Program-made: the position numbers and the translations under genes
Shown: in pieces, positions 14,974 to 57,734 of the stretch
How the letters are laid out: each line of letters starts with the position of its first letter
Numbering within the stretch: position 1 is the first letter of the stretch
Assembly: GCA_027576995.1 (NCBI GenBank)
Contig: JANBQC010000012.1
Coordinates: forward strand, 62,001-126,000
Length of the DNA stretch: 64,000 bases
Direction: 5' to 3'
DNA from: Dimargaris cristalligena
Taxonomy: Eukaryota > Kickxellomycota > Dimargaritomycetes > Dimargaritales > Dimargaritaceae
The notes under the pieces: generated by a model
The model's input: the letters and a program-made list of their open reading frames with translations, nothing else
Databases searched by the model: none
Told to the model about the DNA's origin: nothing

Positions 14974-17382
14974 TTAGAGCTTACTTTTGAGTGGAATATT
15001 AGAATATTGGAAACGTATTCCATGTTCAGGAGGTAGGACCGGGTGGTTATTCGGGAGTAAATGCCGGGTCAGATAGTCATTCATAAAAACATTATCAGGA
15101 TCCATTTGAGCCCGGACTTCCATGAAGTTCGGGAGCATTGGGTAAACGCGAGCCAAATCCTCGTAGCCCATGCAGTGGAACTGGTGTCGGAGGGAGGCGG
15201 GTTAAACAATAGGTGCGTTAGCAAGAGATGGGTGTGGTTAATGGATAGGGCAACTTTCTTAATAGATGGAAATAAGCCATGGCATCCTATTGAGCCGGCT
15301 CTGGGGTACAGATAGCAAACTAATAAATATAAAACAGGGTGAAGGGGATGTAGCCGACCATTGCATCACCAGCATATGACCTACTGGCCAATACATAGAG
15401 AGGGCCGTTACGGCAGCCCAAACTAAAAGTGCAGTGGGCGTATCTAAGGCTGACCAGATTGTTCAGGTGACCCAGCAATGTAAATCGAATATATGGGATC
15501 ATCCATTGTCACAAGGTTTAGTTTGGCCTTTGTTAAATCCGCCAGGCATCGTTTGTTACTAGCTAATATATCGATCTTTACCTTGGCCCAGTGTGGTCGA
15601 CCATCCATGGACTTCATAACTGCTTCAAAGTCCGTCCAGAATTCGCCGTACGGAACATTGGAATTGAATGGTCTTGGTTTACAAACATAAGGCAGTTGGT
15701 AGACAAATAAGTATTATATGGTGAGCACAGTAAGTCCCGGCACGCAAGTAATATATACACAGAAATAGATAACCCACTGGGTGCCAATAGCTAGTCGATA
15801 AGGGGTGTGTCGTATGACATAGTTTTTGGAGCGATATGCGGAGATAAAGGAGGTACACTTACTTATACATGACGACCCCAATGTAGCAGGTATCCCGCTG
15901 ATAACACGGGGAGAGCCAAATATCGTCATGCTGGACAAACCGAATCTCAATGGGAAAGTGAATAGGATATTTGGCCTTGGCCAGAACCTGGTTCAACTGT
16001 TTAATGGCTTCACTGGCCCGTCCAGTAGGGATGGCCCACTCATTGGTGTACTGCCGGAACATGCAATCAAAGTTGAAGACTTTATAGCTATCGTCGATTC
16101 GGTGGATTTCTCTTGCATAATCGCGCTTCCAAAGCTGTTTCTCCACCTCGGGCAATATACCCGGCATATACCGACCGACGTACAGCTCCATTTCGTAGCG
16201 CAGCCGATTCTTGCGCTGGGTGATCCGCCAGGTGCTATCCGGCTCTGACTTGACCTAAATAAATGAAATATTATAGGGCAGCGTTCCAAAATGTTAAGTT
16301 AATATAGTGGATACCCCTGCTATGATTCCCAATCCATTAGGAAGAACGGGTCACTGGGTTGGAACATATAGGCGGGACTTGAGGAATTTACCTTAGTAGT
16401 GCGATTCAGAAGAGAGATGGCGACGTTGTTGTTATAAGGAAACCACAGGAATTTAGTGTGCTGGGCTGTCTGCGAAAGGGAGACCAATTCATCCAACATG
16501 GTGGCAAAAGGAATGGGTCGCTGAATGCTCTCGAGCCGGAACGCTCGTTCGCACTGGAGAGTGACTTTGGTCACGATGCCCAGGGCCCCGATATGGCAAC
16601 GAGCGGCCGAGAATATATCGGTGTGATCCATGGCGGAACAATCAATGATTTCACCGGTTCCGGATATGAGGCGTAGACCTAGAACCAGGGTGGATAGATT
16701 ACCAAAACCGGCCCCCGAGCCGTGAGTGGCAGTTCCAATAGCACCAGCGACACTCTGGTCACTGATGGCCCCCAGCACACTGAGGGCTAGATTGTGTTTC
16801 TGTAAGAGAGGGTGGAGCTCGAATAAACGCATGCCACCTTCGACAGTAACCACCATGCGGGTCTCGTCAACCTATTCAGGGGAAAAGCAATGATTGAAGT
16901 TGAGCCCAGTCCAATAGGCGAGTTTTAGTCAATGTATGCGAATCAAACAAGGGTCGGAAAGTGCCCCCTCCGGCCACCGTAGCCCCAAACGAGAAGCTTA
17001 GGTACTAATGTATGTTACGGATGGTCGCTGATCCCCGACATTCATTATTCAGCCGGGTGTAGGCCCAAATAATTTACCCGACCTGATTATCAGCCGATTT
17101 GGCCGTGGGAACAAAAAGACCGGGACCAGGCAGTATGAACCCGCAACTTACTTCCAGCAAACGGTTCATACGGTCCAGGTTGAGCATATAGCCGTCCGTG
17201 CACGGCAAATCGGACGGGGAATGACCCGCCCCGAAGACCTTGACCGTTTTACGGTGTTCACGGGCGCGCTGAACGATGGCCACGATTTCCTTCTCATTTT
17301 GGGGCTCAAAGTAGAGCTCCGGGGAGCAGCTGAACGTTTGGGCCCAGTTACGGTAGGTGAAGGTCTTGTTGGGACGAACCAT
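14974..17382 (-). CDS. ALO1: FAD-linked aldonolactone oxidase (D-arabinono-1,4-lactone / L-gulonolactone oxidase family)
   Basis: Oxidises an aldonolactone in the last step of ascorbate or erythroascorbate synthesis; in yeast the enzyme sits at the mitochondrial outer membrane. Five exons, 17382-17152, 16871-16392, 16254-15863, 15672-15582 and 15180-14974, join in phase to 466 residues, between animal GULO (about 440) and yeast Alo1 (526). Residues 51-57 read GAGHSPS, and His54 matches the histidine that carries covalent FAD in this family. The FAD-binding core continues with SVAGAIGTATHGSGAGFGNL. The ALO C-terminal domain shows FNSNVPYGEFW, the HWAK motif, and a final MDPDNVFMNDYL. Substrate cannot be told from sequence; the fungal setting favours D-arabinono-1,4-lactone. 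Confidence 0.93.
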
Positions 17383-17960
17383 GGTGACTGGGAATCGGTC
17401 CGTTTAGAATTGCTAGGAGGGACCAACGCACTGTCCGGAAAAAACGGCTATGAATGGACAGGAACAGCAAAAATGGGAAATGGCTTGGTACACGACCGGT
17501 TTTTACGAGTTGGAAAGGGAAAAGGAGAAGAGGGTGTTGTATGCGACCAACTACTGTCACTAAGGGAAGGGGGCACTGCATATAGGGGGGTGAAAAAAAA
17601 GGGGAGTAATTAGTGTGACGGTGAATAGGAGACGGCGGGCAAGGCCAATTTGGAGATGCAGTGGTAACTTAATCACCCCAGACAAAGGGTGGTGTGAAAG
17701 TTCCAGTAGGCCATATACCTCCTATAGTTCCCAAAGCCTCTACCAACAGGCTGACTATGTATATATTCATAATATAATGTGGGGAATACGCCCAGCATTG
17801 TTGATAAACCATTTGGATATATGGTAATATTCTCCCATCCTCCATCCCATCCCAACCATATATTATACTTGGTTAATAGGTGAGGAAACAGTTAGTGCGT
17901 AAGGGATGATGTCTTCATAAATGGACGCACCATATCTTAAAATACGCCACGTAAAGAACT
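17383..17960. other. ALO1 upstream region
   Basis: Upstream of the minus-strand oxidase. No gene recognised; presumably holds its promoter and 5' leader. Confidence 0.5.
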
Positions 17961-19890: not shown

Positions 19891-20469
19891 GAAGGGCTGA
19901 TAATATCTAAGGCCACTGGTAATAACCAAAGCTAGGAACTGAAAAATATATATAAAATAATGAAATATTAAAATAAACAGTGATATAAGTTATCAGTAAT
20001 CATACCAACAGCATAGTAAATTTAGCTGGATTTATTGCTATTGATTGATATATATTGAAAATATTGCAAGAAATTTAATATAAAATGAAAAGGATATGAT
20101 GGATAATTAGTTTTATGTGATAAAATGGGAATATATGATTGATAAAACTGCGGTTTATAGAGATAAATAGTTTATAACCAGTAAAGAAATCAGTTAATTA
20201 TTTAACCTTTTCAGCTACCTGTACTCTGCAGTACCACATATGCTATGAGTAAAAATAAAGGATATATAAATTGTGGAATGCAAAAATAAATGTTAATAAA
20301 TAGGAGCACCTATTCAATTATAAAGTAGTGTATATTTAACCTAATAAACTATTATAAAAAAATAACTTAAAGTAGTCTCTATAGAGGAGTTAAATTATAC
20401 ATCATCTATTCTTCAAATCTTGAATTTTATTTTTTTGACAAAATGGGAATCGGAAAATCCTTATATGTA

Positions 20470-20542
20470 GCCCGGTTAGCTCAATCGGTAGAGCGTGAGA
20501 CTCTTAATCTCAAGGTTGCGGGTTCGACCCCCGCATTGGGCT
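20470..20542 (+). tRNA. tRNA-Lys (CTT)
   Basis: A 73-nt cloverleaf without intron. The acceptor stem GCCCGGT pairs with ATTGGGC, counting G-T pairs, followed by discriminator T. The D arm is GCTC/GAGC. The anticodon stem TGAGA/TCTCA holds loop CTCTTAA with anticodon CTT, which reads AAG lysine codons. The T arm GCGGG/CCCGC holds TTCGACC. A and B box promoters are intact. It sits at the right edge of the decayed retroelement island. Confidence 0.97.
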
Positions 20543-22320
20543 TCTACTTTTCCACTTTTGATGCTGATGTTTATTTTTCGAGTTAATTTGACCCATTCTT
20601 TATTATTGTAATTGTATATTTACTCACGCCAATGCATTGGCAACCAATTTTTGTACGATCTTATACTGGCCGTTTACATCAATCGTTTTTGGCATGCAGT
20701 AGACATTACCCATATACTACATTAGTTGTCAGTTATATTCTTGGTGACCATAGGTTTTGCCGCAGTTTGAATGAAAAAAAATCGGATTTGGTATTAGTGC
20801 ATGGGGATGTTTATGTTGGATTAGCCAGGCTAACCCCCCCCTGGTCAACTGCGTACTACGGCATAACCGAATTAGCCGGGGGGGAGAGCAGTGCAGTTTC
20901 ATATTGCCATACCTCTGAAAATTAATTGAGCCATTCTTATGCTTATCCCAATATCCAGTGGCCACAGTTCATCCAGGATAGATTGGTTGTATGGCTCTAG
21001 TTGTAGATGCTTCTTATACCTTGGTATTTCTGTAGTTTGCCAATAGGTAAATAACAAGACGCTGAAGAGAAACGCGCTGTCTTTCCCCAGGCATTATTGA
21101 GCTACCCCCCTCCACCTGACTGGGCTAATTACCATTCCCCCCTTATTCAACAGCATCTTGCCCCAGGGTATTTCTCTATCAACTCATTAAGTTAGCCGTT
21201 ACAATATACTTTGAACCCGAATATGCCACGGCCATAGTAACCGGAATGGTACAGATATTACATTTCTTTCGCGATAGCCATTAGCATATGTGGTCAAGGG
21301 ACCTTATCGGTAGATATCAGTGGAGTGGCTCGGACAGACCTATTGTTCGTTTGGGATGTATGCAGATGAGAGGATCACCTTGGCCAACGTAGTCCCCGCC
21401 TAGAAAGAGGGATATGCTGTGCCTTCTTTGCTAATATTTTTCCCCTGACAGAGTCCAAGAGCTGTGGACAACTGACAGTCTGTGGCTTATTTGGCGAATT
21501 CCCAGCAAGTTGAAGTAATGCGAAGAGAAAGATGGACTGCTAGTGGAGTTGGACCCCTTAAGGGGCGCCAGCCTAAGCAAGAGTTGCTCCCGAGGCTCGT
21601 ATGTTTATCATAGACCTTGTAGTACTAATAAAGGAATATGGTTGTCCATTGGATTAGATTGACCTAGTTCATCCCTCCTACCTGACCTACGTGACTCAGC
21701 TGGTCTATTATTTATACCAAATTATCGTCCTCCCCTCTTATCGAGCGCATAAACACATTACCAGCGTGTATGCATGTGTCCACTCCCAAGCCAAATGTTA
21801 TTATATAAGATACAGATGGCGTGCTTATAACAACAGGTCCTTCCTTCCTTTCTCTCTCCCTTGGTCCTTGCGTCCTTCTAATTTACGGCCTTTTCACTTA
21901 TCTCCCGCGTCCTTTAGAAGCCCCCCTCTCTTGTACTTTGCCCGTTAAACTATTATTTGTGTTTTAATATTTTAGATAACCCGGTCCGTCAGTTACGGTC
22001 CTTTGTGCTCACCTCCTCGTTTTATTAGGCTGCCCGGCATCGGCCACAGCCCATTGCTGCCCATTTAGTTTACCCTCCGTTGCCTGCTTCTAACTTTACT
22101 CAGTACCGTTTCCTGTGTTTGCTCACATTCTTATTTTATTACTCTATATGCTCATATCTCCCTCTTTCCATGTAAACTACATTTGCCGTTTTCTTTCACT
22201 ATTAGCTATACCATAAATCTCTTCCAACCCCATTGCCCGCATTACCCGAGCCTTGCCCTGGGCCGTTAATCTTACTTGTGGTTTATTGCTTCGTCACCCG
22301 GTCAATACTGGACAAGCCAA
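20543..22320. other. Intergenic between tRNA-Lys and ATG13
   Basis: Unremarkable sequence with pyrimidine-rich stretches toward ATG13. The open frame at 20632-20925 has no recognisable features. No gene supported. Confidence 0.5.
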
Positions 22321-22505: not shown

Positions 22506-25500
22506 ATGAGCCGCCCGCCGACCGGTTCGCCCCAGCTACCCAGCCTTACTCTTACGGCTTCGAATGCCACGGATGGCCCTACTTCCGCCTCGACCGCCAG
22601 AGTCAGCCGCGATGAGCAAATCGTCCAGAATTTCGTTTCCAAATTCGCTCAGCTAGTGGTTCAGACCCGTTGGAGTACAGGTAGCGCATCCCAAGCGTCT
22701 TCACCCACAAGCCCAGACAGGCTCATTACCTCCCCCCGGACCAATAAATGGGTAAGTCATTATAATACAGCTAAATTCCGCCCTATTACTTGGTATTCCT
22801 TGAACCGTTGGTCCATTACAGACTAGTCGGTCTAGTCAGTCAGTGTCGTAGACCCCTCTACTCAATTCTTCATGATAACCTCTAACGATATACCATATAT
22901 ATATATTCTCGGGCAACTCTGCGGTTTATGTCCCAATAGTTCAATTTAGAGACTGAGGACCTCGAATCGGTCCGGTCCGATATCAAGTACTGGCGGGCCG
23001 CTGTATTATTATCAACCCCTCCCCCACCCCTGATACTGGAAGTGTATCTGGATGTAGCTCACCTGGTTCCACACCAGAATTTAGTGGTTACTGACGAGCG
23101 GCTTCGTCGCTGGACGGTCGACCTCCAACTACCCCTGAACGATAGCCATTCCAGTCTCAACTCCCAGTATTCCCAATTTCCCTCACCCGATCACCGAAGT
23201 GGAGTTCGGCGCTATACCTCGGTGCTCCTCGAAACCTGGCAGCTCCAGCTCAGCCACCCCGTTCCCTACCCACCCCCCGAGCTACCAACCATTTACCAAA
23301 AGTGCATCGTATTCTTCCGGGGGCTCTTCACAATGGCTCGGCTACTTCCCGCCTACCGGTTGACCCAGCGCCTCCGCCAATCAACCCCATCTCCTATTCT
23401 TAGGCTAGGCTACCGATTCAACACTTCTCCCACGACACCATCCCAGGAAATTAAAATGGACACGAGTCTGACCGGCGCCGTCAACACTACTTCGCATTAC
23501 TGCTTCGACCCTCTGGCCACCTCCCTTGGCACATTCAACGCCAGCGTCACCTACCGAAGTGGCTGTAGTTTCCACGTGGAAGGCCCCGACCATCTGATTG
23601 ATTCCGAAACTAACCCCTACTTTTCACCAACCCTTGCCCAACCGGGGGCTGACTCCACCACGTTCCATACCCCATTTAAGATTCCCACACCGGCCTCAGC
23701 GGTTGCTACCGCCACAGCCAACCCCGCTGCTCCCGGATATCGGGATAATCTACACCAGTCGCCTGGACTGATGCCACTCCACCGACGAACAGCCAGTACC
23801 CAGTCGAACCGGACCGTGTATAGTTCGTCGACAATGGGGCCCGGGGTCGAGAATGGCCCCCTGTCGTCACTTCACCGGCGTTCATCCACGTCATCCCGGC
23901 CCATCTCAGGAGGATATGCCGCACCTGCATTACATTCCATTTATGAGCGGCGGTCTCCCACGTCAACCGATACAATCCCTTCGTATGATCGGACCATCTA
24001 TTCACAAGGGCGGGCGGCAACTAGCGGCTATCCCACCACTTCCCCCTCTACCCGCCAGCAGCCCCTGATAACAGGCTACCACCATCAGCAGCACTCGGGT
24101 TCCAGTCTCGGACGCATCCCGTCCTCCTTCGAGAGCCGATATTCGCCCCATTCGGGCGGGGGGCCCGGTGGCTCGGTAGTGCCGCCCACGTCCTCCAATT
24201 CGCTGTCCCGGGGTGAGTCTCGAATCCGGCCCCCCAACGCTGTGGTACCAGGTAGCCTAGCCTCACAGCCTGGTTCAAGTGTATCATCAGTGGCGGCTAT
24301 TCTTCGTCGGCCTTCCCTTAGTCTAGTTTCACCTTTCAAGTCCCCATCACTATCATCCTCACCAGCGTCCCCGCTCCACCAATTCCACCATCAACATGCC
24401 CACCATTCATCGTCCAACGAGACTGAGGCGTCCTATATCTCCCAGAAGTCAAAGCGTCCATTGTCATTTGGTCCTCATTCCAATCCTCGTAATGGCGTAT
24501 TCCTTGCCAATTACTCAACTTCCTCTGGGGGGGACCCCACTGGCCTCACTAACCCAGTAACAAGGCCCCAGTCCTCGGCCACAGTCGCCTCGCGGTCCAA
24601 CCCCCTGGGGTCGGAGTCTGTGGCGGGAAGCCCACCCCGTCTATCCTCCTCGTTCGCCCATCGGTACCGTCAATCTAACACCATGTCAACTGAGGGTATC
24701 CGAGACCCTCATTCCCCCGTATCGCCCATCCTGGCCCGACCCAGTACTTCCCAAGGGTCAGCGTCCGGAAGCGGTGGTGGGGTCAGTGGCGGTGGCGGCG
24801 GTGTAACGGCCACAGGTTATCCCCGGGCGGGGACTGTGACCAACCAACGCCGACAGTCACTCCTCAGTGATTGCGCCGAAAGTATCTCTGATATGAGCCT
24901 CAATGCGCCGCCCGCAAACGACAGTAACCCTAGTTTACAGCACCACCCACAACTCCCCTCTCGCCGAGTATCCCTGGGGCGGGACTCTATCCCCCCCTGG
25001 GAAATGGACTCCTTCGACCAGGATACTGCCGAATTTCAGCGCATTCTCGACTCCCAAACTCCGCTTCGGCTGCCCAAAGCGGGGACTGTCAAACCACCGA
25101 CGAGTATAGCCACCCGTCGTCGCATGGATCCACCCCACCAGCCACTGGTTGAGAGGGGCGACCCTTCCCCTAATCAGGTGGTGCATCAATCCCCCGCCTC
25201 GATTGGTCCAGCTGGTCCGTCAAGAATGGCACAGCCAGCAACGGGTCCCAGTGCCACCACTGTTGGAAGTGGTGGTGACCTTGGCCATTTTCGGCGCCTT
25301 CGCCAATCGTACAATTTCATGGCGGATTCCATCGCTTTGAATGTAGGTGGCGGCCCCCCGCTCGCAGTGCCGACGACTCGGTCACCTTCGGAACAGTCTA
25401 CCCGTGCGTTGTACTCGCACTCCCCACGCGAGCCAACTTCCCCATTTGTCAACCCAGCCGACCAACAGGGCCAGGGCGCCAAAGAAATTGTTGAATCTGG

Positions 25501-26308
25501 CAAAAGCGGTAATGGAAAAGGAGATATTTTTAAAGCGGCTAGTGTACCTATCCACCCAACCGCTCAACTGTACTACAAACCCAATAGTGCTAATCGTAAT
25601 CGAGCTGGAAGCATCGCGCAAGGCGATAATGGAATTCGACGGTTCAGGTCGCGCCCACTTGCACCTACTCATGTACACTCGCATGAGGAGACCGAGGGCG
25701 AGGAAGAAGATGATGAGGCCGATAGCCAGGACGAGGCGGATACCCGCAGTCGTGTTCCAGCACCAATACCCAGCCGAAGTAACGGCTACTGGTCCCGCGG
25801 GGGCAATAAAGGGAACAACCCCTCGTCGCCCAAGCCCAATATCGCACCCTATCCAGCCAACACCACCGCCACCAATATCCCTTCTTATGGCACAGCTCAT
25901 GGTCGTTTTTCACTCTCTGACCCCCCGGGCTCACCCAACTACCACCAGTTCAAAGCTGAACTACCCTCCGCTCCCCCCAAATTTGGCCCCCATCCCACCG
26001 CTTCACCCATTGCCACGGTTCAGCACCAGTCCGTGACCGTCGGGCAATCCATTGCGGGGTTTCATCCCTCCAGTGGGGGTGGATCCCCCGGCCCTCTATA
26101 CGGGCCTACTCCCTTGGTTTCGGCCCTCCGTGGCTACACCCTGGACTCACCCTATCCCTCTGCGACAACCAACGGTCGATTGACGGAAGGCCACCGAAAG
26201 ACCTCCTCCCAGCCCACCCATAATGTTGTGATTACACCAGACATGGAAGACAACGACTCATTACTATTCGCCATGAGCGGGTCGTCTTTGAATGAATCCA
26301 ACTTTTAA
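22506..26308 (+). CDS. ATG13: Autophagy-related protein 13 (Atg13)
   Basis: Regulatory subunit of the Atg1 kinase complex that starts autophagosome formation and responds to TORC1. Two exons, 22506-22751 and 22940-26308, join in phase across a 188-bp GTAAGT...AATAG intron, giving 1204 residues; yeast Atg13 has 738. The N-terminal HORMA region carries the family signature: EQIVQNFVSKFAQLVVQTR, WFNLETEDLE right after the splice, LRRWTVDL, a VLLETW strand, and IVFFRGLFTMARLLPAYRL. The rest is a very long Ser/Pro/Gly-rich, probably disordered region of the kind that carries TORC1 phosphosites and Atg17/Atg1-binding motifs. It ends with EDNDSLLFAMSG, close to the C-terminal motif conserved in fungal Atg13. 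The start is the first ATG before the HORMA sequence. Confidence 0.93.
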
Positions 26309-28140
26309 CACTCCATTTGGGCCAATGGGAAAACGGTCACTGATTGTTTTTTATTGTGAGTTTGTATTTTTGGTTAACCATTATTACCTCTATATCTGTC
26401 CTGATATATTATTAAATTCATTTACCAGTCTAGTGGTGTTTTATAAATTTGGGCTATTTTATATACTACCCGCATTTTTGAGACATCGGGAGTGGGGAAT
26501 TTTAGAATGGGCCAGATTTCTTTAACATGGTGATGTCTAGTCGGAACTGGTATCTTGTGATCTTTTTCTGGGCGAGGTTGTCTATGATAACAACTGCCCT
26601 TAAAAATGCCTAGTTGCCGGTCTAGCTTAGATTCTATTTTTAAAGGCCTATTATTTTCCCATTTGGCCAGGTTTATATATTAGCACCTGCTCCACTGAAT
26701 CTTCGCAGCCAACTAACCCTTTAGAGATTTACGCCAAGAATTATTGGCCATCTTAAAGCTGAAACGTCTTTACTTTCATCGGATAAGGCAGGGCACATGA
26801 TTGGGAATTTCGCGGCCACCCCCCCCTGCCTTCTTTATGCATAACACTCTATCCCTACCATCTTTTAATTCGTTATAGGGTATTCTCATCACCGAAAACC
26901 AATAGTCCAGCTTTTGGTCTTCTCGATTACACCGTCTTCGTGCAGTGGTGGGTTAAAGCTCAAGAGAAGCAAATGCCGGGTAGTTTTCTATTCTAGCTAC
27001 TATGTTTTAAAGAACACTCCAAACGCATAGTTCAAGAAGATGGGATGCAACAGAAAATGGCCGCTGTTTAACCGCACCCTCACGCTTGAAATACCGGTTG
27101 GATAGTTTAGCCTATCATGGCAATTGGTTTTCAAGATAAAAGGCCCGATACTGGAGATTATTTTGAGATGGCCGCCAATGCTTATCAATTGGGAGGAAAT
27201 AACCTAACCAGGATCTTTGCATTAATGCCAGTCGGGGGATTCACTATGTGATTAGAGCAGGACATGCCGATGCTGATAGACTTCAAACCGACCCTCTGTC
27301 CCATGGCCTTCGCCTAATGTTTATTCGAATATGACGGCGAAGTAAAATTGGGGAGGGGAGGGTGTTGAAGTACAATGTATTGTGAAGAATAGAGAGAGAA
27401 CAAGAGAGAGTACGAGAAGGAGAGGGTTTGTACTGTATGGAGAAAAGACAAAGACATGGCCAACCACCGATCCTCATTCCCATTGTTATATTTACAGTAA
27501 GAATGATTAGATTATTATTCGTCTATTACTTGCACCACCCTGCTGTATGTATGAGCTATGCTATTTTTACGGATATTGGGTGAGCTGAGACGGTTGGTTG
27601 GATATACGGTAACCTAAAAAGCGAGCATTTAGATAGGCGAGAGGTCTCTTGACGAAATATATAGGGGAAAGAAGAGTAGTAATCGTTCTATAGTCAGAAA
27701 CGGTTAGTGACCCCCATTGGCCAACTCTTGCGCTCGTCTAATATATTATTAGGGGCCCCGAGTTGATTGATCGGCATCTAAATTTGACCTGGGGCACCCG
27801 TTGTAATCGGGACGAAAAGAAGGAATAAGTGCGAGTGAGTAAGAGAGAGAGAGCGGGTGAGGTGAGTGTGACCGTCCCCTTCATTATTCGTCTTCTCCAC
27901 ACGGCCCCTGTTCCCTCTCCCTCCCTCTGTGTTCGATTGCGAGCGAGAGCAATTCCGCCCAGTGGCACGATTAGTCCAGGTGCTATTGAACTGCAGAGGA
28001 ATAACCTTTTTCCGGGGATTTAAATGGCCCAAATTACGGGCATTTCCAGGGCTAACAAAGATTGGGTGGAGGGTGCGTATCCCCGCACCCTCGCCCCACT
28101 CCTCCCCCGCCCCCGCGAATCCTCCGACCAGAAGAAGCAC

Positions 28141-28162
28141 GCACACACACACACACACACAC

Positions 28163-28193
<31 letters not shown>

Positions 28194-28194
28194 A
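28141..28194. repeat. (CA)n(CT)n compound microsatellite
   Basis: Alternating CA units run directly into CT-rich units over about 54 bp. Confidence 0.9.
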
Positions 28195-28812
28195 GGGCCC
28201 TCTATATTAAATTCGGGCATTATTAGTGCGGGGAAAAGGACGACGACGCCGAGTATAATCCGTAAGGATACCCTTTATAACGCACCGGCCCCACTTTCTT
28301 GGAGTTTATATACTACGTAGGTCCCTCTCGGCCGTTGGGCCCCAATGCTCCACACATTCCCTCCAAAAATCACTAAAGTGTGCTTTACGCGACAGGTTTA
28401 TTTAATGTACCTTCACTCTTCTTTAACGAGTCATTATCGCCACCGTTAACAACGAACACGACACTGGTTCCCTAAATTACGGCTATGTTATATATCCACA
28501 TATTCCTCCGCCCATCTTAACCATAAACCCCAGTGTTGAGCTACCGTTTCTTACCTTTCCATGATATATATTACTCTTCGAAGTGCTCTGTTTATTGCAT
28601 CTTCTGTTGATTAGAGCCCGCTTCGCCTTTTCTACCCTTTTCTTGTATAAATACATCTCTCTCTCCAGTAATCATCTCGATTATTTCGGAGTTTTCTGTC
28701 TATCTGTCTGCCCAGTATCATTAACTTGTGCTCTAAATTTTTTCTACCGTGAATACTCGCTTCCCTTTCCTAAGGGTCTTCCCTTGCAGTCTCCCATTCC
28801 ACTCCCTCCCTC

Positions 28813-37158: not shown

Positions 37159-38712
37159 TTAGATGATAAACTCGGTGTTCATATCCATGGGACGACCAGT
37201 GGACATTTGGGGAATTTGCTTGTATTTGGACTTGAGAATATCCCGAATCGAGAACAGTAATTCGGTATACACGAGGCTCTGCGAATTGGTGAGTACTTCA
37301 ATGAGGGCGTGGCTCATGGCCCCGGTGGCCTGGTTATTAATCTGGGCGTCGGCCGAGGTTTGGTCATCCCGACAGCCGGAGAACATGACCACATCAGCTG
37401 TGGTACCCTTGGTTTCCTTGGTGAGCTTGTCGGCTTCGTTGGCCTGGCCGCCCGAGGTGAACATTTTAAAGCCCTGCACCAGACCCTGGAGGGCCTTCAT
37501 GGAGTCACCCTGTTGGAAGCTCATGCCGGCGTTGAGGAGGGTCATGGCGGCTTCCTTGCGGTTATCGGAGGTGATGACCTGGATGGACCCGTCGCAGTTG
37601 TAAGTATAAGGCAGGTCGAGCACGGTCCCGCTGTGGCACGAGTCGAAAACCGCGGTCAAACGGACACCCTGGGGGAGGGGTTGGACCAACCACTCGTTGA
37701 GCAAGTCGTCGGGGATTTGGCCCGCCTCTTTGTAGTCAATCGGCAGGATAGTTTCGTCAAAGCCGTCGGCCTCATCCCCGTTGGTGTCCTTTTGGGTCCC
37801 CCCGTGGCCCGAGTAATGCACAAAGAGGGAATCGCCGGGGTTGGCGCCCTTGACCAGCCAGTTACAGGCGGCCTGGATATTGGCGTAGGTGGGGATGAAC
37901 TTGGGGTCCTGCTGGTCGTCGGTCAAGAACACACAGTCACTCTGTTTGAAGCCCTTGCGCTCAATGAGGAACGACGAGATGTTCTTGACGTCGTTGATAC
38001 AACCCTTCAGCTCGGCGTCGGTGTTGAAGTAGTTGATACCAATGAACAGAGCCTTCTTGCGCCCCCGACAGTTGGACAGCGACATCTGGTAGCCGCCGAT
38101 TTCCTGGGAGTACATGCCTCCGTTGCCGCTCTGGTTGGGATCCGCGTAGAACTGACTGCCGGGTGGGGCAATGTGCATCCCGTGGGGACCGGGCCCCTGG
38201 GGCGGTGGGGGGTTGTTGTAGGCCTGGGAATCATGGGGTTGGTACACCTGATGGCCCTGTTGGTCAACATGGGCACCGGGGCCGTAGTTACCACCGCCCT
38301 GTTGGCCGGGGTAGCCCCCCATTCCACCGAACCCCTGGTTGGGAGGAGGGGGATAGTGTCCGCCACCCTGGAAGTTCATGTCGCCACCACCCCCGCCGCC
38401 GTATTGGCCGGGGTAGGCATTATGCTGGCCGTACGGACCGCCTCCACCATGCTGAGGGGGATACTGGTTGGGATAACCGCCACCCTCGCCACCGCCGTAG
38501 CCACCACCCTGCTGGCCAGGGTAGCCGCCGCCTCCTTGGTTCTGGTATGGGGAAGAAGGGTACTGGCCACCGTAGCTACCGCCCTGTTGACCGGGGTACT
38601 GGGACGATTGCTGATAGCCACCGCCGTAGGGAGCGCGCTCCTTATCGTCGTCGGAATTGCCGCTGAAGCGACCGGCCTGCTCCTCCACAAAATTGGTGAA
38701 ACGGTTGAACAT
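37159..38712 (-). CDS. MCA1: Metacaspase (type I)
   Basis: A cysteine protease of the caspase-like clan that cleaves after Arg or Lys; fungal members act in stress, cell death and protein quality control. Single exon of 517 residues. An N-terminal prodomain of about 200 residues is rich in Gly, Gln, Pro and Tyr, with repeated GGYPGQQGG units typical of type I enzymes. The p20-like part begins at KKALFIGINYF. The catalytic dyad is intact: His303 in YSGHGG and Cys359 in FDSCHSG. The C-terminal p10-like part includes SGCRDDQTSADA. The frame stays open to 38844, but those upstream codons are a Ser/Leu-rich leader; I chose the ATG at 38712, which starts MFNRFTNFVEEQAG. Confidence 0.95.
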   Translation of the reverse strand: MFNRFTNFVEEQAGRFSGNSDDDKERAPYGGGYQQSSQYPGQQGGSYGGQYPSSPYQNQGGGGYPGQQGGGYGGGEGGGYPNQYPPQHGGGGPYGQHNAYPGQYGGGGGGDMNFQGGGHYPPPPNQGFGGMGGYPGQQGGGNYGPGAHVDQQGHQVYQPHDSQAYNNPPPPQGPGPHGMHIAPPGSQFYADPNQSGNGGMYSQEIGGYQMSLSNCRGRKKALFIGINYFNTDAELKGCINDVKNISSFLIERKGFKQSDCVFLTDDQQDPKFIPTYANIQAACNWLVKGANPGDSLFVHYSGHGGTQKDTNGDEADGFDETILPIDYKEAGQIPDDLLNEWLVQPLPQGVRLTAVFDSCHSGTVLDLPYTYNCDGSIQVITSDNRKEAAMTLLNAGMSFQQGDSMKALQGLVQGFKMFTSGGQANEADKLTKETKGTTADVVMFSGCRDDQTSADAQINNQATGAMSHALIEVLTNSQSLVYTELLFSIRDILKSKYKQIPQMSTGRPMDMNTEFII

Positions 38713-42017: not shown

Positions 42018-44650
42018 CTCGGGATATGGGGCATATTATTGGGGAGCAGAAGGGGGGGGGAGGTAGCGCTAACTAACATTGCTCAAAAACACATAATGGC
42101 ACCACTCGTATTTCTTTCCCTTTACATACCAGTCCATCTCCGTACCCTTCCTTGGTCTCGTTTCTTTTACCGGTCCATTAAATCCTGTAGAGCAGCAACC
42201 CTTTGCTATGCTCCCTCAATTTACTATATAACTAGGGTTGCTAGTATCACCTGCGTCGCCAACTCGTTTATTGAAAACTCGATACAAGGTCGGCTCCCAG
42301 ATGATTATGCCTTTGTACAGGGGGCGGGTGGTAATGAGAGGTAGATTTCACGGGTCCCCCATGAGCAAGGGTTAGATAAACGGGCTGGGGCGCTATGGCC
42401 AATGGGCGAGTCTAAGGGGAAGGTGTGGCAATTGGAGCAATGCAAGGCTAAAGGCCCTATCCCCTATATTGATCACAAACCAACTTGCTGTTGTATAGGA
42501 TGGTCAACAAAGAGGGACCCTCTCCCGGGCGGAGGGAGAAGCATTGTTAGAATGTGATTGAGCCCAACCTTCCATCCCCTCACCTCATAGTACAAAGTTA
42601 ATAATGCGACGATGAGCGGGAAAATGAGTGGGGGGGGGACTGCACTCCTCCATCATAATCAAAACCTTAGCGAATTGATCTATTTCAGCCCAGCTTACCG
42701 GAGCTAACCCCCAACCCCGCTCCACCCATCTAGTAAGGGTATGTGGATGTCAGTATTCCCAACCAAAAATAAATTGTACATAATCTCACTTCGCTGAGAG
42801 GTACGCTCTGTTATCGTCAAATCAGATAATAAAATATAGAAGGAAGTGCAGTATAATACCACATCCACACTCGCAGCCTTGGTCATTTTGCTGGGCGCAG
42901 CTAATGTGGTAGTTGCATTTTCCCGAGTTTGAGAAAACTACTATTATACTTAAAAAACCCTAGCCAACCTCTTTGTCGGGTACATCAAACCGAAAGCGCC
43001 CACTTGTCGTGGAATATTCATCGATATGCAGCCATTGAAAAAATAAAAATAAGAAGTTGTAGCACCAACTATTCCCAAGTGGTCACCCACCTCAGTACTA
43101 AATTGGCTGATAAGCACTTAACTTCGCAGATCTAACGGGATACGGTGCTAACGCTTACATATGGCCACAACTGAAAAAGACCACATCAAGCATGCTTTTA
43201 TTAAATATATATTACGTGACTAATGAGCGAAATGGGTATTTGCCCCCTTTCGTCTACGATCGCGTGACAGGTAATGGAAATACTATGTGGCGCTGTCGCT
43301 AATTGCGCTTCAATAGAGTATGCTATCTCTAATTTTCTATTCCTACGACTGTTTAATTGGATTTTTACATAGAAGTCCCAAATTTAAACAGTTCATCAAT
43401 AATGAGGCGATATTATACCTAAATCTTGTATGCAGTTGTTGTTAGTAACCTATGGGTTCTATTTAAGTTTATTGTTTGAAATCGGCCGGTTTGTGCTGCC
43501 TGTCGCGTAAATTTATCTTTTACAGTTGCTCAACGCCACTGTAGAAGTACAGTGGTCTGTAGATTTTCAATGCAATAGCATCGTTATAAGCGTACGCTGA
43601 TAATCTAGCGAATATCAGTCCACCTTTCGATGTTAGTTGGTGGTAGAAGTATGGAGAGATATGTGGGATTAGTAGGGTATTCAGGAGTGCCAGTTCGTCT
43701 ACAGCGAATACTGGCTTACCCACTGTCCCAATATTAGTCACGCCTTTTTAATGACTAAAGTGCTTGGTTGGCGATACCGTATTATATCAGTGTAGTCGGG
43801 AATGTGACGAATTTATGCTACATCATAAATTGGCCTTATTTGATAGTACAGCCTGTCTGGTAGAGGCTAAAGCCAAAAGTACTGTAACGGATGGGTCGAA
43901 GGAAAAGTTGCGGAGGTTGGTGGGTGCACTAGACATAATTGTGGCTAAATATGTCCCTGGTGCTATAAAATGGCCAGCCAGTATGGATAGAGTAATACAC
44001 TGGGCGACTTCTATTAAAAAAGTTGAGTTGGCTAAATGGGAATCTCTAGAAAATGGGCCTGCCCGGATTAACGAAGATCGGGCCAGAGGTAAATAGAGAG
44101 TCACATCGTCGAGGTCCAATATAGAGTGGCCATGGACTAAATGAGTCTGGGGCTGGTTTCAATGATATTGACAGTCTATCCATGTTAGGCTAAACCACTA
44201 GGGGAGCCAGCCAACTCCACTAGTGCAACATGGCTGCTGGTATTTAGAAAAAATGGGTTAAGCCAATGTAAGCCAGGGCTTGAGCCCTATGGGCCCATAT
44301 TTTATCCCACCGATTGTCCCACCCACCCATAGTTGCTATGGGGGAGCGCAATAAGTGTCCACCAAATGGCCTATATATCGCCCAAAGGAAATAGGAAAGG
44401 AGTAATGACTAGAATTATAAAACACACACCAAACCGGCGGGCCGCGGTGAAGCTCCCTCTTCAATCCTGATTTATTCGTTACTCCTTACCCCGTTTCGAA
44501 ACCGTAGGATCAAAAAGGTATGTGCTGCCGTCATTCCACCGTATATTCGTCGCCGCCCCGCCCCATCCTGTCACGCCCGCATACCATCCGACGACATAAC
44601 GAATTGCACTCGAGACATCGATTATAGCCGAAGCGCCACCATTGCTGCTT

Positions 44651-44941: not shown

Positions 44942-45706
44942 ATGGGTCGCGTCATCAGAGCTCAAAGAAAAGGTAAGGGTAGCATCTTCAAGGCCGTTAC
45001 CCGCCTCCGCAAGGGTGCCGCCAAGCTCCGCTCTCTCGACTTCGCCGAACGCAACGGCTACATTCGTGGTGTCGTGAAGGAAATTATCCACGACCCCGGC
45101 CGTGGTGCCCCTTTGGCCAAGGTGCAATTCCGTAACATGTACCGGTTCCAGCGTGACACCGAAACCTTCATTGCCACTGAAGGTATGCACACTGGTCAGT
45201 TCGTGTACTGCGGTCAAAAGGCCAACCTTACCATCGGCAACGTCCTGCCCGTGGGTACTCTGCCCGAAGGTACCATCATTTGCAACATCGAGGAGAAGCC
45301 CGGTGACCGCGGTTCCCTGGCCCGTACCTCTGGCAACTACGCCACCGTCATTGGTCACAACCCCGACGATAACAAGACCCGTATCAAGCTGCCCTCCGGC
45401 TCCAAGAAGGTCCTCAACTCCAAGTGCCGTGCTACCATTGGTATCATCGCCGGTGGTGGTCGTATCGACAAGCCTCTGTTGAAGGCCGGTCGTGCCTTCC
45501 ACAAGTACCGCGTCAAGCGCAACAGCTGGCCCAAGACTCGTGGTGTGGCTATGAACCCCGTCGACCATCCCCATGGTGGTGGTAACCACCAGCACATTGG
45601 TCACGCCTCGACTGTCGCCCGCAACCTGTGCGCTGGTCAGAAGGTCGGTCTTATTGCCGCCAGACGTACTGGTCTGCTGCGCGGTACCAAGAAGATCAAG
45701 GATTAA
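44942..45706 (+). CDS. RPL2: 60S ribosomal protein L2 (uL2, RPL8 in animals)
   Basis: A core large-subunit protein that binds 25S rRNA near the peptidyl-transferase centre. Complete at 254 residues, the same length as yeast Rpl2. Starts [18 protein letters not shown]; contains [33 protein letters not shown] and the highly conserved [16 protein letters not shown], whose histidine is needed for function in this family; ends [11 protein letters not shown]. Strong C-ending codon bias fits high expression. The coding part has no intron. A TAATAG just before the ATG could be the acceptor of a 5' leader intron. Confidence 0.98.
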
Positions 45707-48133: not shown

Positions 48134-51100
48134 CTAGTTAGATAGGGAGAGGCGAATTTCTCCCATGGGCACTTCTTGGGCCACGCGCAAATAATCCGCT
48201 GAGGCTAGCCCTATAAAATATGAAGTTCAAGATACGTAGATTGTAGAATTTAACAGATATTTTAGAAGATTTAAGGTGGGATTGTGATAGTGTGGTGGGC
48301 GAATGAGAGAGACAGGCTGTATGGGTTGGTTGATGTCAAACAAGTCATATTCCAAGGCCGAGTCCACAAACCTGGTCTAAAAGTATTGCCTACCTAGTAC
48401 GTTGAAGAACGCTTGACTGGCAATCGCCCGGTTAAGGGATTTGGGCGGAACCACATCTTGGAAAGTGCATTGGTTTTCTTGACCAGCCATCAGGTGTTCC
48501 TTTGTGAATCTGGGGTATAGTATGTGCCAGTCAAAGTGGTGTGAAAATTAGAGTCCACCCGACCTCAGATCGGGATGCCCTTAGCTATCCAAGTACTTTT
48601 ATAACGAAGGTAGATAAATCTGTTTGGTTACTTACAGTAAAAAGTCCAGGCAGTCCGAATTCAGGCAGTATAGTTTTGGGGGTTCTGTCAATGTAGGTTG
48701 GGGGGGCTGTGCCTGAGCATTCAGGCCGTCCTCCACAACCTCCTCTAGGTAGCGTGGCGTAATATACAGTAGGTTTGTGGTTTTATTAGTTGCTAAGGGC
48801 TTATCATCCTTGGCTATCCGGGTAATTAAAGAGTTTGGTCTGGAAAGAGGCGCACTGTGAAAAGCCTGTCGTGACCTGGCTGTGGCTAGGATTATTGGTG
48901 TAAATTCTTACCGATAATTGGACTGGTGGGACGAATTATAAACTCATTTGATCGACTCGCACCGCCTTCTGAAAACCTTTCCGCTGTAACCATGTTTCGG
49001 CCCCAGCTTCCCGTTGGACTAATATAAGCAAACACAAAAGTAACATGGTAAGTTTTATATATATGTATTTATGTTGAAATAATTGATGATTAGACAATGG
49101 GCGTTTCATTCGGTTTAAAGCTTCTTGTCGGAGATGGGATCACTTTAGCTACCCTCCTGCCTAAATATATCACTTACGTTAGCTGACTTGGACGTGTCAT
49201 ACCCAAACTCTCATATCGAAAATTAACATTGGCTAGCGAGGAGCGACCTGACAGTCGATCTGTCCCATAGGATTAAACGAACAATAGTGTCCGTAAGGGT
49301 TAATAAACACACCAGTTGCCCGGTGTATTAAAACGTAGAACATTAGTGATTGGTGGGCAGATTGCTCCGAAGTTCACCAGTTTGACATGGGAGGCCCATA
49401 AATATACCATGCATATAAATAAGCACCGCCAAGCGGACTTACCCGTGGTGCGGTGGGTGCTTGTACTCCACGGGGGTATTGGGCGATCCCATTCGTGGAA
49501 AGAGTCGACCTCGGATTCAGCAGCTCGGGCATCTTCTGGGTCTTCGTACTAAGTTTCATTTACAATTCGTATTGTTATCAGGTGTAGATACACCATATAA
49601 AAGTGCATGCTCATTTGGCTAAGTGACTGGGATTGGTATTGACTTTTTTAAATAGACTAAATCAGAGTCAGTCAACTGTATATATCATGGCGAACCGCCT
49701 AAAATCTAGTAAATAACTTACTCGAGGAAACTCGCTCTGTGGGTCTTCTAGTGTATGGGTACTAAAATGATCATCGATTCCTATACTAGATGACTGGTAT
49801 ATGAGCTGATCTACCAAGGCTATTGCATTAAAAACAAAACGCTAGTTTTTAGTACTCGCCGGATTTGACAAAGCTACTTAATACGGTGTAAGATGGCAAT
49901 CCGCTAAACATCCTATTTAGGGTAGTTTATCGTATACTTACCATCTGCCGGGCGCTCATTAAAGGGGAATCGATGACTATATATTCGACTCAGGTTCAAT
50001 TTCCCTAAAATATTGATATAAAAAAAAACCACCGAGAAACAGTTAGAAGAGGTGCGTTGATTAGAAAGTGCAATTCGGTATTTCATCGGGTCCACGGTGA
50101 TGTCGGATCGGCATAACCACTACATTACATTCTAAGGCAATGCTTTAAGTGATTTGGCTTACTTTGCCCTAACCGTCGATAAAGTAGATTGGAGGCTTTT
50201 TGGGATATGTCCATCAATTTTATCTAGAATGTATGTATTGTATTTGGATAGTAGAACTGTACGACCACAGTGTATATCATTAGATCCAAACTGTACTTCT
50301 ATAATGTCCTGTACACTGAATAATGATAATAAAGTAGCCCCCATCATTGGGTAACTGTACTTACTCTTTTACTTATATTCTGACAGCGCTTTTTCATATA
50401 GCCCAGATACTCTATTTGATCTTTAAACCACGCCGTTGGGGGACATTCGGTCGTTTCATCCATCCAGTTGGGCTGACGCTTACGACAATGAGACAAGTGG
50501 ACATCTTCACTTAAAATCCCACCTAATGAAGGTCGCCCGGCCGCCTCCAGCGCCAAAGAATGGACAGTTGCTACCGAGGCTGAATTTCGACTGACTAACC
50601 TATGCCATGGGCCCGTGGTATCGACTTCGTCCGAATGGGATTCGGGCAACTCCAAGGACGGATTTCGAGACGACTCAAGGTAGGTTTCCGCACGAGTTAA
50701 TGGTTTGGAGGTAATGGGTTGTTTCGGTGGAACGACCGGGGCGGACGCGATCCGGTGAACAAAGGGTGTGGTTCGTTGGCCGACTCGCTGGTCGTCGGGT
50801 ACTGTCTCGTGATCACTGGGGAGTGGGAACGCCTCCTCAAAAGTCAAGCTAGATATTGAAAGGCATTGGGTGGAGGCACACACAATGATAATATAATACG
50901 CCTTAAGCAATCAGGTAGAAAAGTTTCTAAAATCAAGTTCAGAAGAAGTACCCGGGGTTTTAGGTATTTATTTAAGAGCCGGTTCAGAGATATGTACACG
51001 AATTTTTGATACTCTATGGTATATATACCCACTTTTGATCCCCGTCTGAAAGGATGTCTAATTCGAGCGAAATGTCCGAGTGGTTCAGGTTAAGGGAAAT

Positions 51101-52640
51101 GTCGTCAAAACATTCCAACGTTGGGCCAAATGACATGGTGGGTAGATCTAGTTTGGTAGTGAAGGACGTATGATCGAGAGTGGTATCCATTACGCACTAA
51201 ATTAGCATAATAGAAAACTCTGTTGGAGCAGCTATACTTGTGTTTTATAGAGCAACCTCTATAAAGGTCAGTATGCATTGTCGACCTACCTAAATCGTCA
51301 TCCAATTTGTGCAGGTGTGGCCCGTGTATCCCATCCGCCAACTCATAGCCCTTCATAAAATATTTAAGCTGGTTTCCCATAGGTAGTGTATAAAGTAATG
51401 GCAATTTTAAGTAGACATGGTTCAATGTGTTAACCCCACAAACGCCAATAATACTTTATCAGGCAGTACGCTGATTGAGATTAGTGACTAATTATGTGTA
51501 AGTAAGGACTTACACTTTCACCCGTAGCTATTTGATCTTCAGTGATAGTACTTAACCCGATGCAGTCTTCCAAAGTAATTGTATCGAATCTGGTAATAGT
51601 GATTTATGCCATTAATACAAAATAAATGCCTATAGCTTCCAAACCTCTAGATTTTTACCTTGAAACTGAAACAATTTTGATAGACCGTTATCAAAAAATA
51701 TAACTATAGTATTACCTGCTGGATTCACACGATAAATTGATATGTTCGCCTAGGTGAACCCAATGATTTCTATACCGGATTTGGGTCCAAATGGAGTTGA
51801 CGTCCGCTAATATATACATGTATATTCATTTACAGGAGGATATATAGCACAATACAAAGCTGTGGGTATTTAGTAAATTTTTATCATCAGGTAGATGGAC
51901 TACTTAGACATCATTATTATGAGAGAAGCTATAGTGTTATTGCTTTAGAGAGCATGCTCCTAGTAGGCCAAATCTGCTTACTCATGTAGTAGGAGATCTG
52001 TTGTTGATATACGCGGGATATCCCAGCCACCAGGTGGGATAGTAGTCTGAGCGCAAATGGATGTGGAGGCTGGCCCAAATATTCGCTGTTAGTATTTGAG
52101 GAATTGTGAATGAAAGTGAATAATAATAGTAACAATAATCTAGGTTAGAAGCCCTTTTAAAATTATCCCGATCTCAAGCGCGAATAATTTAAAATAACCA
52201 ATAGAAATACAGGAAAATCAGTCCATGTATCAAAAAGGGGGATGTCTATGGGTATATTGCCGCTTAGATACTAGACTTACCACACTCTAACAATATTGAC
52301 ATGGTGAATTTCCTTTTTGGAGAGTCGTCGTGAATAGATCTTGGTCCCTACAGTCGCCGCAAGCCTATCAATATTAGGTAATATAATTTCAGCTGAGTGT
52401 ATTCGTACCGGTTAACGGTCTGGGGAGACTGTAGTCAATCTCGGTCCCCCTGTCACTAAGAGTACGGCACCTCTATTCCCTTATCAGCGTGGTCCGAAGT
52501 CGCTGTTGGGCTAGCCAGCATCACCAAAGAAGGGAGGTGATAACAAGCGGGAAGAGTGTGATAGATATCAGACATTGATCTTACCAGATTAGGGCCAAAC
52601 CGTGCTTTTCGGCTGTCACAATCTCGGACGAGTAAAACAT
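48134..52640 (-). CDS. REC8: Meiotic cohesin kleisin Rec8
   Basis: Rec8 closes the cohesin ring on meiotic chromosomes. I joined 13 exons: 52640-52585, 52364-52281, 52085-51982, 51749-51716, 51589-51514, 51196-51033, 50848-50373, 50004-49942, 49747-49722, 49548-49443, 48792-48636, 48509-48394 and 48210-48134. All phases agree and give 512 residues. The N-terminus MFYSSEIVTAEKHGLALIW, then LAATVGTKIYSRRLSKKEI, matches the Rec8 form rather than mitotic Rad21, since S. pombe Rec8 has IWLAATLGSK. ALRL...GISRVYQQQ follows. The C-terminal winged helix reads PPKSLNRAIASQAFFNVL, then ASADYLRVAQEVPMGEI, the SMC-binding end. The middle is acidic and linker-like, as expected for separase cleavage. Least certain is the exon 6 donor (GTGGGT). 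Confidence 0.9.

Positions 52641-55872: not shown

Positions 55873-57734
<1,862 letters not shown>

What the first reader, a model, noticed from the sequence alone, without database searches (positions are those of the whole stretch)
48134..52640. Rec8 meiotic cohesin hidden in 13 small exons
No single reading frame reveals this gene. Both Rec8 ends are present, all 13 exon phases agree, and the total (1539 nt) is divisible by three. Exons as short as 26 and 34 nt occur. The N-terminus matches Rec8 rather than Rad21, implying meiosis in a lineage where a sexual cycle may not have been observed.
Basis: partly seen in the sequence, partly recalled or inferred. Interest (0 to 1): 0.8.

Follow-up and report, generated by a model that had tools for sequence, protein, structure and literature searches.

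The report
Intron-dense Rec8 meiotic cohesin gene
This stretch carries a gene, predicted to be split into 13 to 15 mostly small exons, whose protein has both end domains of cohesin's ring-closing subunit and is likely Rec8, the version that would hold sister chromosomes together in meiosis; the same genome also encodes the meiosis protein Dmc1, so its owner, probably a fungus, is likely able to reproduce sexually.

Summary
The gene is real. On the minus strand, 52640 to 48134, I rebuilt 15 exons (1791 nt, 596 aa; all 14 introns GT-AG, phases agree). The product passes Pfam's cut-offs at both ends: Rad21_Rec8_N (90 bits) and Rad21_Rec8 (29.8 bits).

The meiotic set includes Dmc1 (over the curated cut-off), Hop2, Mnd1, a Spo11 exon, and likely Mer3 and Msh4. 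Hop1 and Msh5 were not found.

Rec8 itself is a new member of a known kind. What stands out is a contrast in one genome: four meiotic genes carry at least 33 introns in about 1,320 residues, while Rad21 has none and Rad51 none over 311 codons. Non-meiotic genes with introns also exist.

The parts
52585..52640 (-). exon 1 (start codon; MFYSSEIVTAEKHGLALIW), 56 nt
   Evidence: hit by N-domain profile without splicing; exact in gene finder
52281..52364 (-). exon 2 (LAATVGTK...; T after WLAA as in the three recalled Rec8s, H in the three Rad21s), 84 nt
   Evidence: third-best of 3,097 frames
51982..52085 (-). exon 3 (core of kleisin N-domain), 104 nt
51776..51806 (-). exon 4, 31 nt, end of N-domain
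   Evidence: adding exons 4-5 raises the Pfam score from 82.2 to 94.6 bits; its donor is the weakest of 14
51514..51589 (-). exon 5 (FDTITLED...), 76 nt; continues the N-domain frame, Pfam match covers only its first residues
51033..51196 (-). exon 6, 164 nt; donor GTGGGT
50373..50848 (-). exon 7, 476 nt; may end at 50365 instead, at a stronger donor
   Evidence: acceptor recovered
49942..50004 (-). exon 8, 63 nt, weakly supported; absent from the 13-exon variant
   Evidence: donor only recovered
49722..49819 (-). exon 9, 98 nt, weakly supported; absent from the 13-exon variant
   Evidence: donor only recovered
49443..49548 (-). exon 10, 106 nt, holds a separase-like DPEDAR
49178..49232 (-). 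exon 11, 55 nt, weakly supported
48912..49018 (-). exon 12, 107 nt
48636..48813 (-). exon 13, 178 nt
48394..48509 (-). exon 14 (C-terminal winged helix, first part), 116 nt
48134..48210 (-). exon 15 (C-terminal winged helix, end; stop codon), 77 nt
50163..50308 (-). 146-nt open stretch between AG and GTAAGC inside intron 7; out of frame with exon 8 (stop at residue 391 if included); not assigned

Best explanation
The minus strand from 52640 to 48134 encodes a kleisin (both Rad21/Rec8 end domains are present in the predicted 13-to-15-exon product) that is likely Rec8, the meiotic cohesin subunit. By the established working of the family, its N-terminal helices would bind Smc3 and its C-terminal winged helix Smc1, closing a cohesin ring around sister chromatids in place of Rad21 during meiosis. 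Separase would cut it on chromosome arms at anaphase I and at centromeres at anaphase II. Shown here: the two end domains, the Rec8-like N-domain, a separate Rad21, and Dmc1, Hop2, Mnd1 and a Spo11 exon in the same genome. Inferred: the exact exon count, expression in meiosis, ring closure, separase cleavage and the existence of a sexual cycle. The intron load (14 in my model, none in Rad21) is most simply read as ancestral introns kept in genes not transcribed in vegetative cells, while vegetatively expressed genes lost theirs; that step is inference and untested.
For: Pfam: PF04825 1.4e-25 and PF04824 3.5e-7, both over cut-off. Unspliced control: exons 3, 1 and 2 are the three best of 3,097 frames. 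Spliced product: 82.5 bits with a Rec8-only N-domain profile, 40.2 with a Rad21-only one. BLAST: 41% over 92 residues and 85 bits to S. pombe Rec8, 56-59 bits to the other two Rec8s, 45-49 bits to three Rad21s; the three Rad21s form a clade without the query (support 0.974) (Rec8 letters recalled). After WLAA the query has T, as 3 of 3 Rec8 references, where 3 of 3 Rad21s have H. Genome: two kleisin N-domain places found, this one and an intronless Rad21 of 678 aa with both domains. Dmc1 is over NCBIfam's equivalog cut-off (539 against 447.7 bits, with the Rad51 model at 425 under its 478), while C399 is Rad51 (595.6 against 478); PDB agrees for Dmc1 (DMC1 461 bits, RAD51 369). Mnd1 (102.7 and 66.8 bits) and Hop2 (73.3 and 48.8) each show both of their domains after splicing. 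One Spo11 TP6A_N exon is just over cut-off (28.1 against 26).
Against: No RNA evidence. The five-residue stretch after WLAA that Rad21 chains lack is shared by S. pombe Rec8 but not by human or Arabidopsis Rec8 in that alignment, so it is not diagnostic. No homologue in 5.8 billion proteins. [ED]xxR sites number 6 against 4.6 expected, so no separase evidence. Hop1 was not found (the one HORMA place looks Mad2-like), nor Msh5 (4 MutS genes found). The Spo11 Toprim piece is under its cut-off (16.9 against 24.1). On the intron reading: non-meiotic genes with introns exist (Mad2-like, ALO, at least 23 of 89 kinases, 2 of 4 SMC hinge genes).
Confidence: 0.9

Rival explanations
1. It is a second, diverged Rad21-type kleisin working in mitosis or interphase, not Rec8.
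For: Rad21 and Rec8 share both Pfam families, which do not separate them. In PDB the significant matches are all Rad21/Scc1 chains.
Against: The N-domain fits the Rec8 profile twice as well as the Rad21 one (82.5 against 40.2 bits; Rec8 letters recalled). Rad21 is already present. Dmc1, Hop2 and Mnd1 are present.
Confidence: 0.06
2. It is a decaying relict: the lineage has lost meiosis and the Rec8 frame merely has not broken yet.
For: Hop1 and Msh5 were not found. Four of 14 donors depart from GTAAG (introns 4, 6, 7, 14). No expression data.
Against: The model has 14 GT-AG pairs and no internal stop. Dmc1, Mnd1 and Hop2 stay open over 8, 7 and 7 modelled exons.
Confidence: 0.06
3. The kleisin is right but the middle of the gene is wrong: about 13 exons, with exon 7 ending at 50365 and joined to exon 10.
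For: That variant is in frame (1638 nt, 545 aa) and uses a stronger donor (6.8 against 3.2). A crude gene finder did not recover exons 8, 9 and 11 and proposed other exons there.
Against: It needs an 816-nt intron, against 98-368 nt for the 14 in my model.
Confidence: 0.45
4. The intron-dense genes come from a contaminating second organism.
For: They tend to lower GC3: 0.47-0.59 in four meiotic genes against 0.57-0.75 in the long single frames measured, with overlap.
Against: Rec8 lies on the same contig as single-frame genes such as uL2 at 44.9 kb and a caspase-domain gene at 37.2 kb.
Confidence: 0.02

Closest known systems
Rec8, meiotic alpha-kleisin of cohesin (S. pombe Rec8 closest of the three references tried)
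   Same: Both end domains; N-domain 41% identical over 92 residues to S. pombe Rec8, with the same stretch after WLAA (reference recalled).
   Different: 14 introns in my model. S. pombe rec8 has four (PMC3203177, passages read).
Rad21/Scc1, mitotic alpha-kleisin
   Same: Same two Pfam domains; 25% identity to the genome's own Rad21.
   Different: Own Rad21 is one open frame of 678 aa; the N-domain fit is half as good.
Meiosis-gated splicing: S. pombe Mmi1 on rec8 intron 4; S. cerevisiae Mer1 on MER2, MER3, SPO22, AMA1
   Same: Meiotic genes with introns spliced in meiosis (PMC3203177, PMC6380292, passages read).
   Different: The Mmi1 motif is not enriched here: 5 seen, 5.0 expected in the Rec8 region. 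No expression data.

Membership tests
Rec8 | kleisin N-terminal domain (PF04825) | tested here: met
   90 bits, cut-off 23.1
Rec8 | C-terminal winged helix (PF04824) | tested here: met
   29.8 bits, cut-off 22.7
Rec8 | closer to Rec8 than to Rad21 in the N-domain | tested here: met
Rec8 | coexists with a separate Rad21 | tested here: met
   two kleisin N-domain places found in the genome; C445 has both domains in one frame
Rec8 | expressed in meiosis | not testable with these tools
   no RNA data
Rec8 | separase cleavage sites | tested here: inconclusive
   one DPEDAR; [ED]xxR 6 against 4.6 expected
Rec8 | binds Smc3 and Smc1, protected by shugoshin-PP2A | not tested
   no structure was predicted
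Rad21/Scc1 | N-domain closest to Rad21 | tested here: not met
Mmi1-controlled meiotic transcript | U(U/C/G)AAAC motif enriched | tested here: not met
   5 seen, 5.0 expected

The most novel reading that the evidence does not exclude
In this genome the meiotic programme is an intron refuge and perhaps a splicing gate. Rec8, Dmc1, Hop2, Mnd1 and apparently Spo11, Mer3 and the upstream part of Msh4 are cut into exons of tens of codons, while their mitotic paralogues Rad21, Rad51, Brr2 and Slh1 are uninterrupted where checked. Vegetative cells would fail to splice so many introns, holding meiosis off after transcription across the whole pathway.
Probability: 0.2. Interest if true: 0.7.

Novelty: new member of a known kind. 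Interest (0 to 1): 0.4.

Why it matters
A Rec8 plus Dmc1, Hop2 and Mnd1 is the usual genomic sign of a working sexual cycle, and a gene in such short exons is easily missed by annotation, so a lineage could be called asexual by mistake. The paralogue contrast (Rec8 against Rad21, Dmc1 against Rad51) in one genome offers a clean test of why introns are kept or lost: by expression in the cells that pass on cDNA-repaired copies, or by selection for regulated splicing.

Tried and rejected
Relatives by protein search: none. That collection may hold few eukaryotic proteins (my guess), so absence says little.

Naming the organism: a paper search by assembly size showed nothing usable among 30 of 81 listed. 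For uL2 the table gives no species; by entry names and recall, the best ordinary matches are yeast chains (437-441 bits), with other fungal and animal chains at about 424-436 and plant chains at about 400-412; the top row is a chain with a repeated segment. So probably an opisthokont and a fungus; weak, not named.

Crude gene finder: its splice-site weights were trained on the sites of my own model, so agreement is partly circular. With exons of at least 20 nt, all ten settings gave one 16-exon chain with 8 of my 15 exons exact; with shorter exons allowed it gave 19-25 exons. It mis-spliced exons 2 and 3, which homology supports, and an N-terminus of the finder's kind has no Pfam match. I did not trust it for the middle.

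Mmi1 motif: no enrichment in any of eight genes tested.

Intron-dense kinases as hidden meiotic kinases: the pieces read (seven loci) look by eye mixed (Hog1-, CDK7-, Atg1-, AGC-, STE20-, RCK/Ime2-type and one unplaced). Labels recalled, not pursued.

Is the contrast in print? Listings seen: 15 of 415; 15 of 197; 12 of 71; 10 of 1,190; 5 of 5; 1 of 1; none of the titles and abstract openings shown describes it. In PMC8476143 the string 'meio' does not occur in the main text (find). Splicing control of S. cerevisiae meiotic genes is known (PMC6380292, passages).

Full report
What was checked. The window is bases 62001-126000 of contig C12 in an unnamed 27.1-Mb genome of 779 contigs. I translated the minus strand, read the exon chain by eye from the sequence and verified it in code. 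The model runs from ATG at 52640 to TAG ending at 48134, with 15 exons, 1791 nt and 596 aa. Its 14 introns of 98-368 nt are all GT-AG, with GTAAG donors in 10 of 14.

More than chance. A profile of six kleisin N-domains that excludes this gene was run on the 3,097 open frames of at least 12 aa in the window. It ranked exon 3 (E 1.7e-7), exon 1 (0.0042) and exon 2 (0.29) first, second and third; the next frame had E 4.2. With Rad21 domains alone (PDB output and this genome), exon 3 is first (0.0011), exon 1 second (1.1), an unrelated frame third (2.9) and exon 2 fourth (3.8). The full product has both Pfam end domains over cut-off. An N-terminus of the gene finder's kind has no Pfam match, while mine has 94.6 bits.

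How sure is the exon count. Exons 1-4 and 14-15 are anchored by homology; exon 5 continues the frame, and the Pfam match reaches only its first residues. A crude finder, whose splice weights came from these same sites, recovered exons 1, 4, 6, 10, 12, 13, 14 and 15 exactly, 8 of 15; it missed exons 2, 3, 5, 7, 8, 9 and 11, some of them at one end only. Intron 7 is the weak joint: a stronger donor lies 8 nt downstream (6.8 against 3.2), and joining it to exon 10 gives an in-frame 13-exon, 1638-nt variant. A 146-nt open stretch at 50308-50163, flanked by plausible sites, would bring a stop at residue 391 if included; it may be chance or a poison exon.

Rec8 or Rad21. By BLAST the N-domain scores 85 bits to S. 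pombe Rec8, 59 to Arabidopsis SYN1, 56 to human REC8, and 45-49 to three Rad21s; the Rad21s form their own clade (support 0.974), and query plus S. pombe Rec8 are split from the rest at 0.898. By profile the product has 82.5 bits for Rec8 against 40.2 for Rad21. The residues after WLAA that Rad21 chains lack are shared by S. pombe Rec8 but also lacking in the human and Arabidopsis references, so I do not count them as a Rec8 mark; the T after WLAA is shared by all three references. The genome's other kleisin, on C445, is a 678-aa single frame with both domains and is taken as Rad21.

The meiotic set. Family searches of the genome, exon by exon: Spo11 TP6A_N one place, Mnd1 one, Hop2 one, HORMA one, Mad2-like by eye, Rad51 family ten matches. 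The C24 gene, spliced by hand and again by anchors, is Dmc1 by the curated equivalog cut-off; C399 is Rad51. Mnd1 and Hop2 each show both of their domains. A C135 gene with a Ski2-type helicase exon and a Sec63 exon is likely Mer3, because three other Sec63-domain genes fit Brr2, Slh1 and Sec63 by their frames (labels mine). PDB does not single it out: its best chain is ASCC3, then Brr2. One of four MutS genes, on C104, looks like Msh4 by recalled motifs; its best PDB chains are bacterial MutS and Msh3. Hop1 and Msh5 were not found.

Intron contrast. In the parts I could splice: Rec8 14 introns in 596 aa, Dmc1 at least 7 in 314, Mnd1 at least 6 in 199, Hop2 at least 6 in 210, about 2.5 per 100 aa. 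Rad21 has none in 678 aa and Rad51 none in a 311-codon frame (its first residues lie upstream, unmodelled). Non-meiotic yardsticks, all families that I searched: MCM 8 genes, 6 with the domain uninterrupted, one with a stop inside, one in two pieces; MutS 4 genes, 3 uninterrupted over the domain (the likely Msh4 among them, though upstream pieces of it lie in separate frames), one in two pieces; the three other Sec63-domain genes uninterrupted over their five domains; SMC hinge 4 genes, 2 uninterrupted and 2 in two pieces; kinases 89 genes, the longest piece at least 90% of the domain in 51 and under half in 10, and 23 in two or three pieces. Of the Rad51 family, C578 lies in one frame, while C579 and C250 gave only short pieces. 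My quick housekeeping sum (1 break in 3,326 aa) left out the two interrupted MCMs, the SMC genes and the kinases, and so flatters the contrast. Kinases with very short exons would escape detection, so the baseline is a lower bound. Non-meiotic multi-exon genes also occur in this window (an ALO gene, a kinase), and the long ATG13 frame matches only the last part of its domain (profile 144-233 of 233), so it too likely has upstream exons. The contrast is strong for paralogue pairs but is not a rule that only meiotic genes have introns.

Mechanism. Established for the family, not shown here: Rec8 replaces Rad21 in meiosis and is cut by separase, with shugoshin-PP2A protecting centromeres (PMC8871791, passages read). 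For the introns I favour retention in genes silent in vegetative cells. The alternative, regulated splicing, has precedents: S. pombe rec8 intron 4 shows meiosis-specific splicing (PMC3203177, passages), and S. cerevisiae MER3 depends on Mer1 for splicing (PMC6380292, passages). The S. pombe signal is not enriched here. Neither reading is tested.

Verdict. A real, well-supported Rec8 candidate of a known family in an unnamed, probably fungal genome; the claim about an unobserved sexual cycle cannot be judged.

Noticed in passing
window 14977-17403 (-): Multi-exon D-arabinono-1,4-lactone oxidase gene (ALO and FAD_binding_4 matches on four separate frames): a non-meiotic gene with several introns.
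   Followed up: partly
window 9109-10937 (-): Protein kinase gene; the genome search places its domain in two pieces.
   Followed up: no
window 43054-43172 (-) and 20469-20544 (+): 5S rRNA and tRNA-Lys, anticodon ctt.
   Followed up: no
window 23333-26308 (+), 37159-38712 (-), 44942-45706 (+), 55873-56655 (+): Long open frames: part of ATG13, a caspase-domain protein, ribosomal protein uL2 (complete in one frame), part of an epimerase.
   Followed up: partly
L040 3236-4048 (+), genome C104: Msh4-like MutS: 271-aa last exon and separate upstream pieces; the Walker A region reads GAHRSGKTT, unlike the usual GPNMSGKS of MutS proteins (recalled).
   Followed up: partly
window 50163-50308 (-): Open stretch with plausible splice sites inside intron 7 that breaks the frame if included: a possible poison exon.
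   Followed up: partly
window about 27780-28200: Simple repeats giving RERERE and CVCVCV frames.
   Followed up: no
L032 (C183, - strand): STE20-type kinase (label by eye) in small exons; could be a meiotic kinase, not identified.
   Followed up: no
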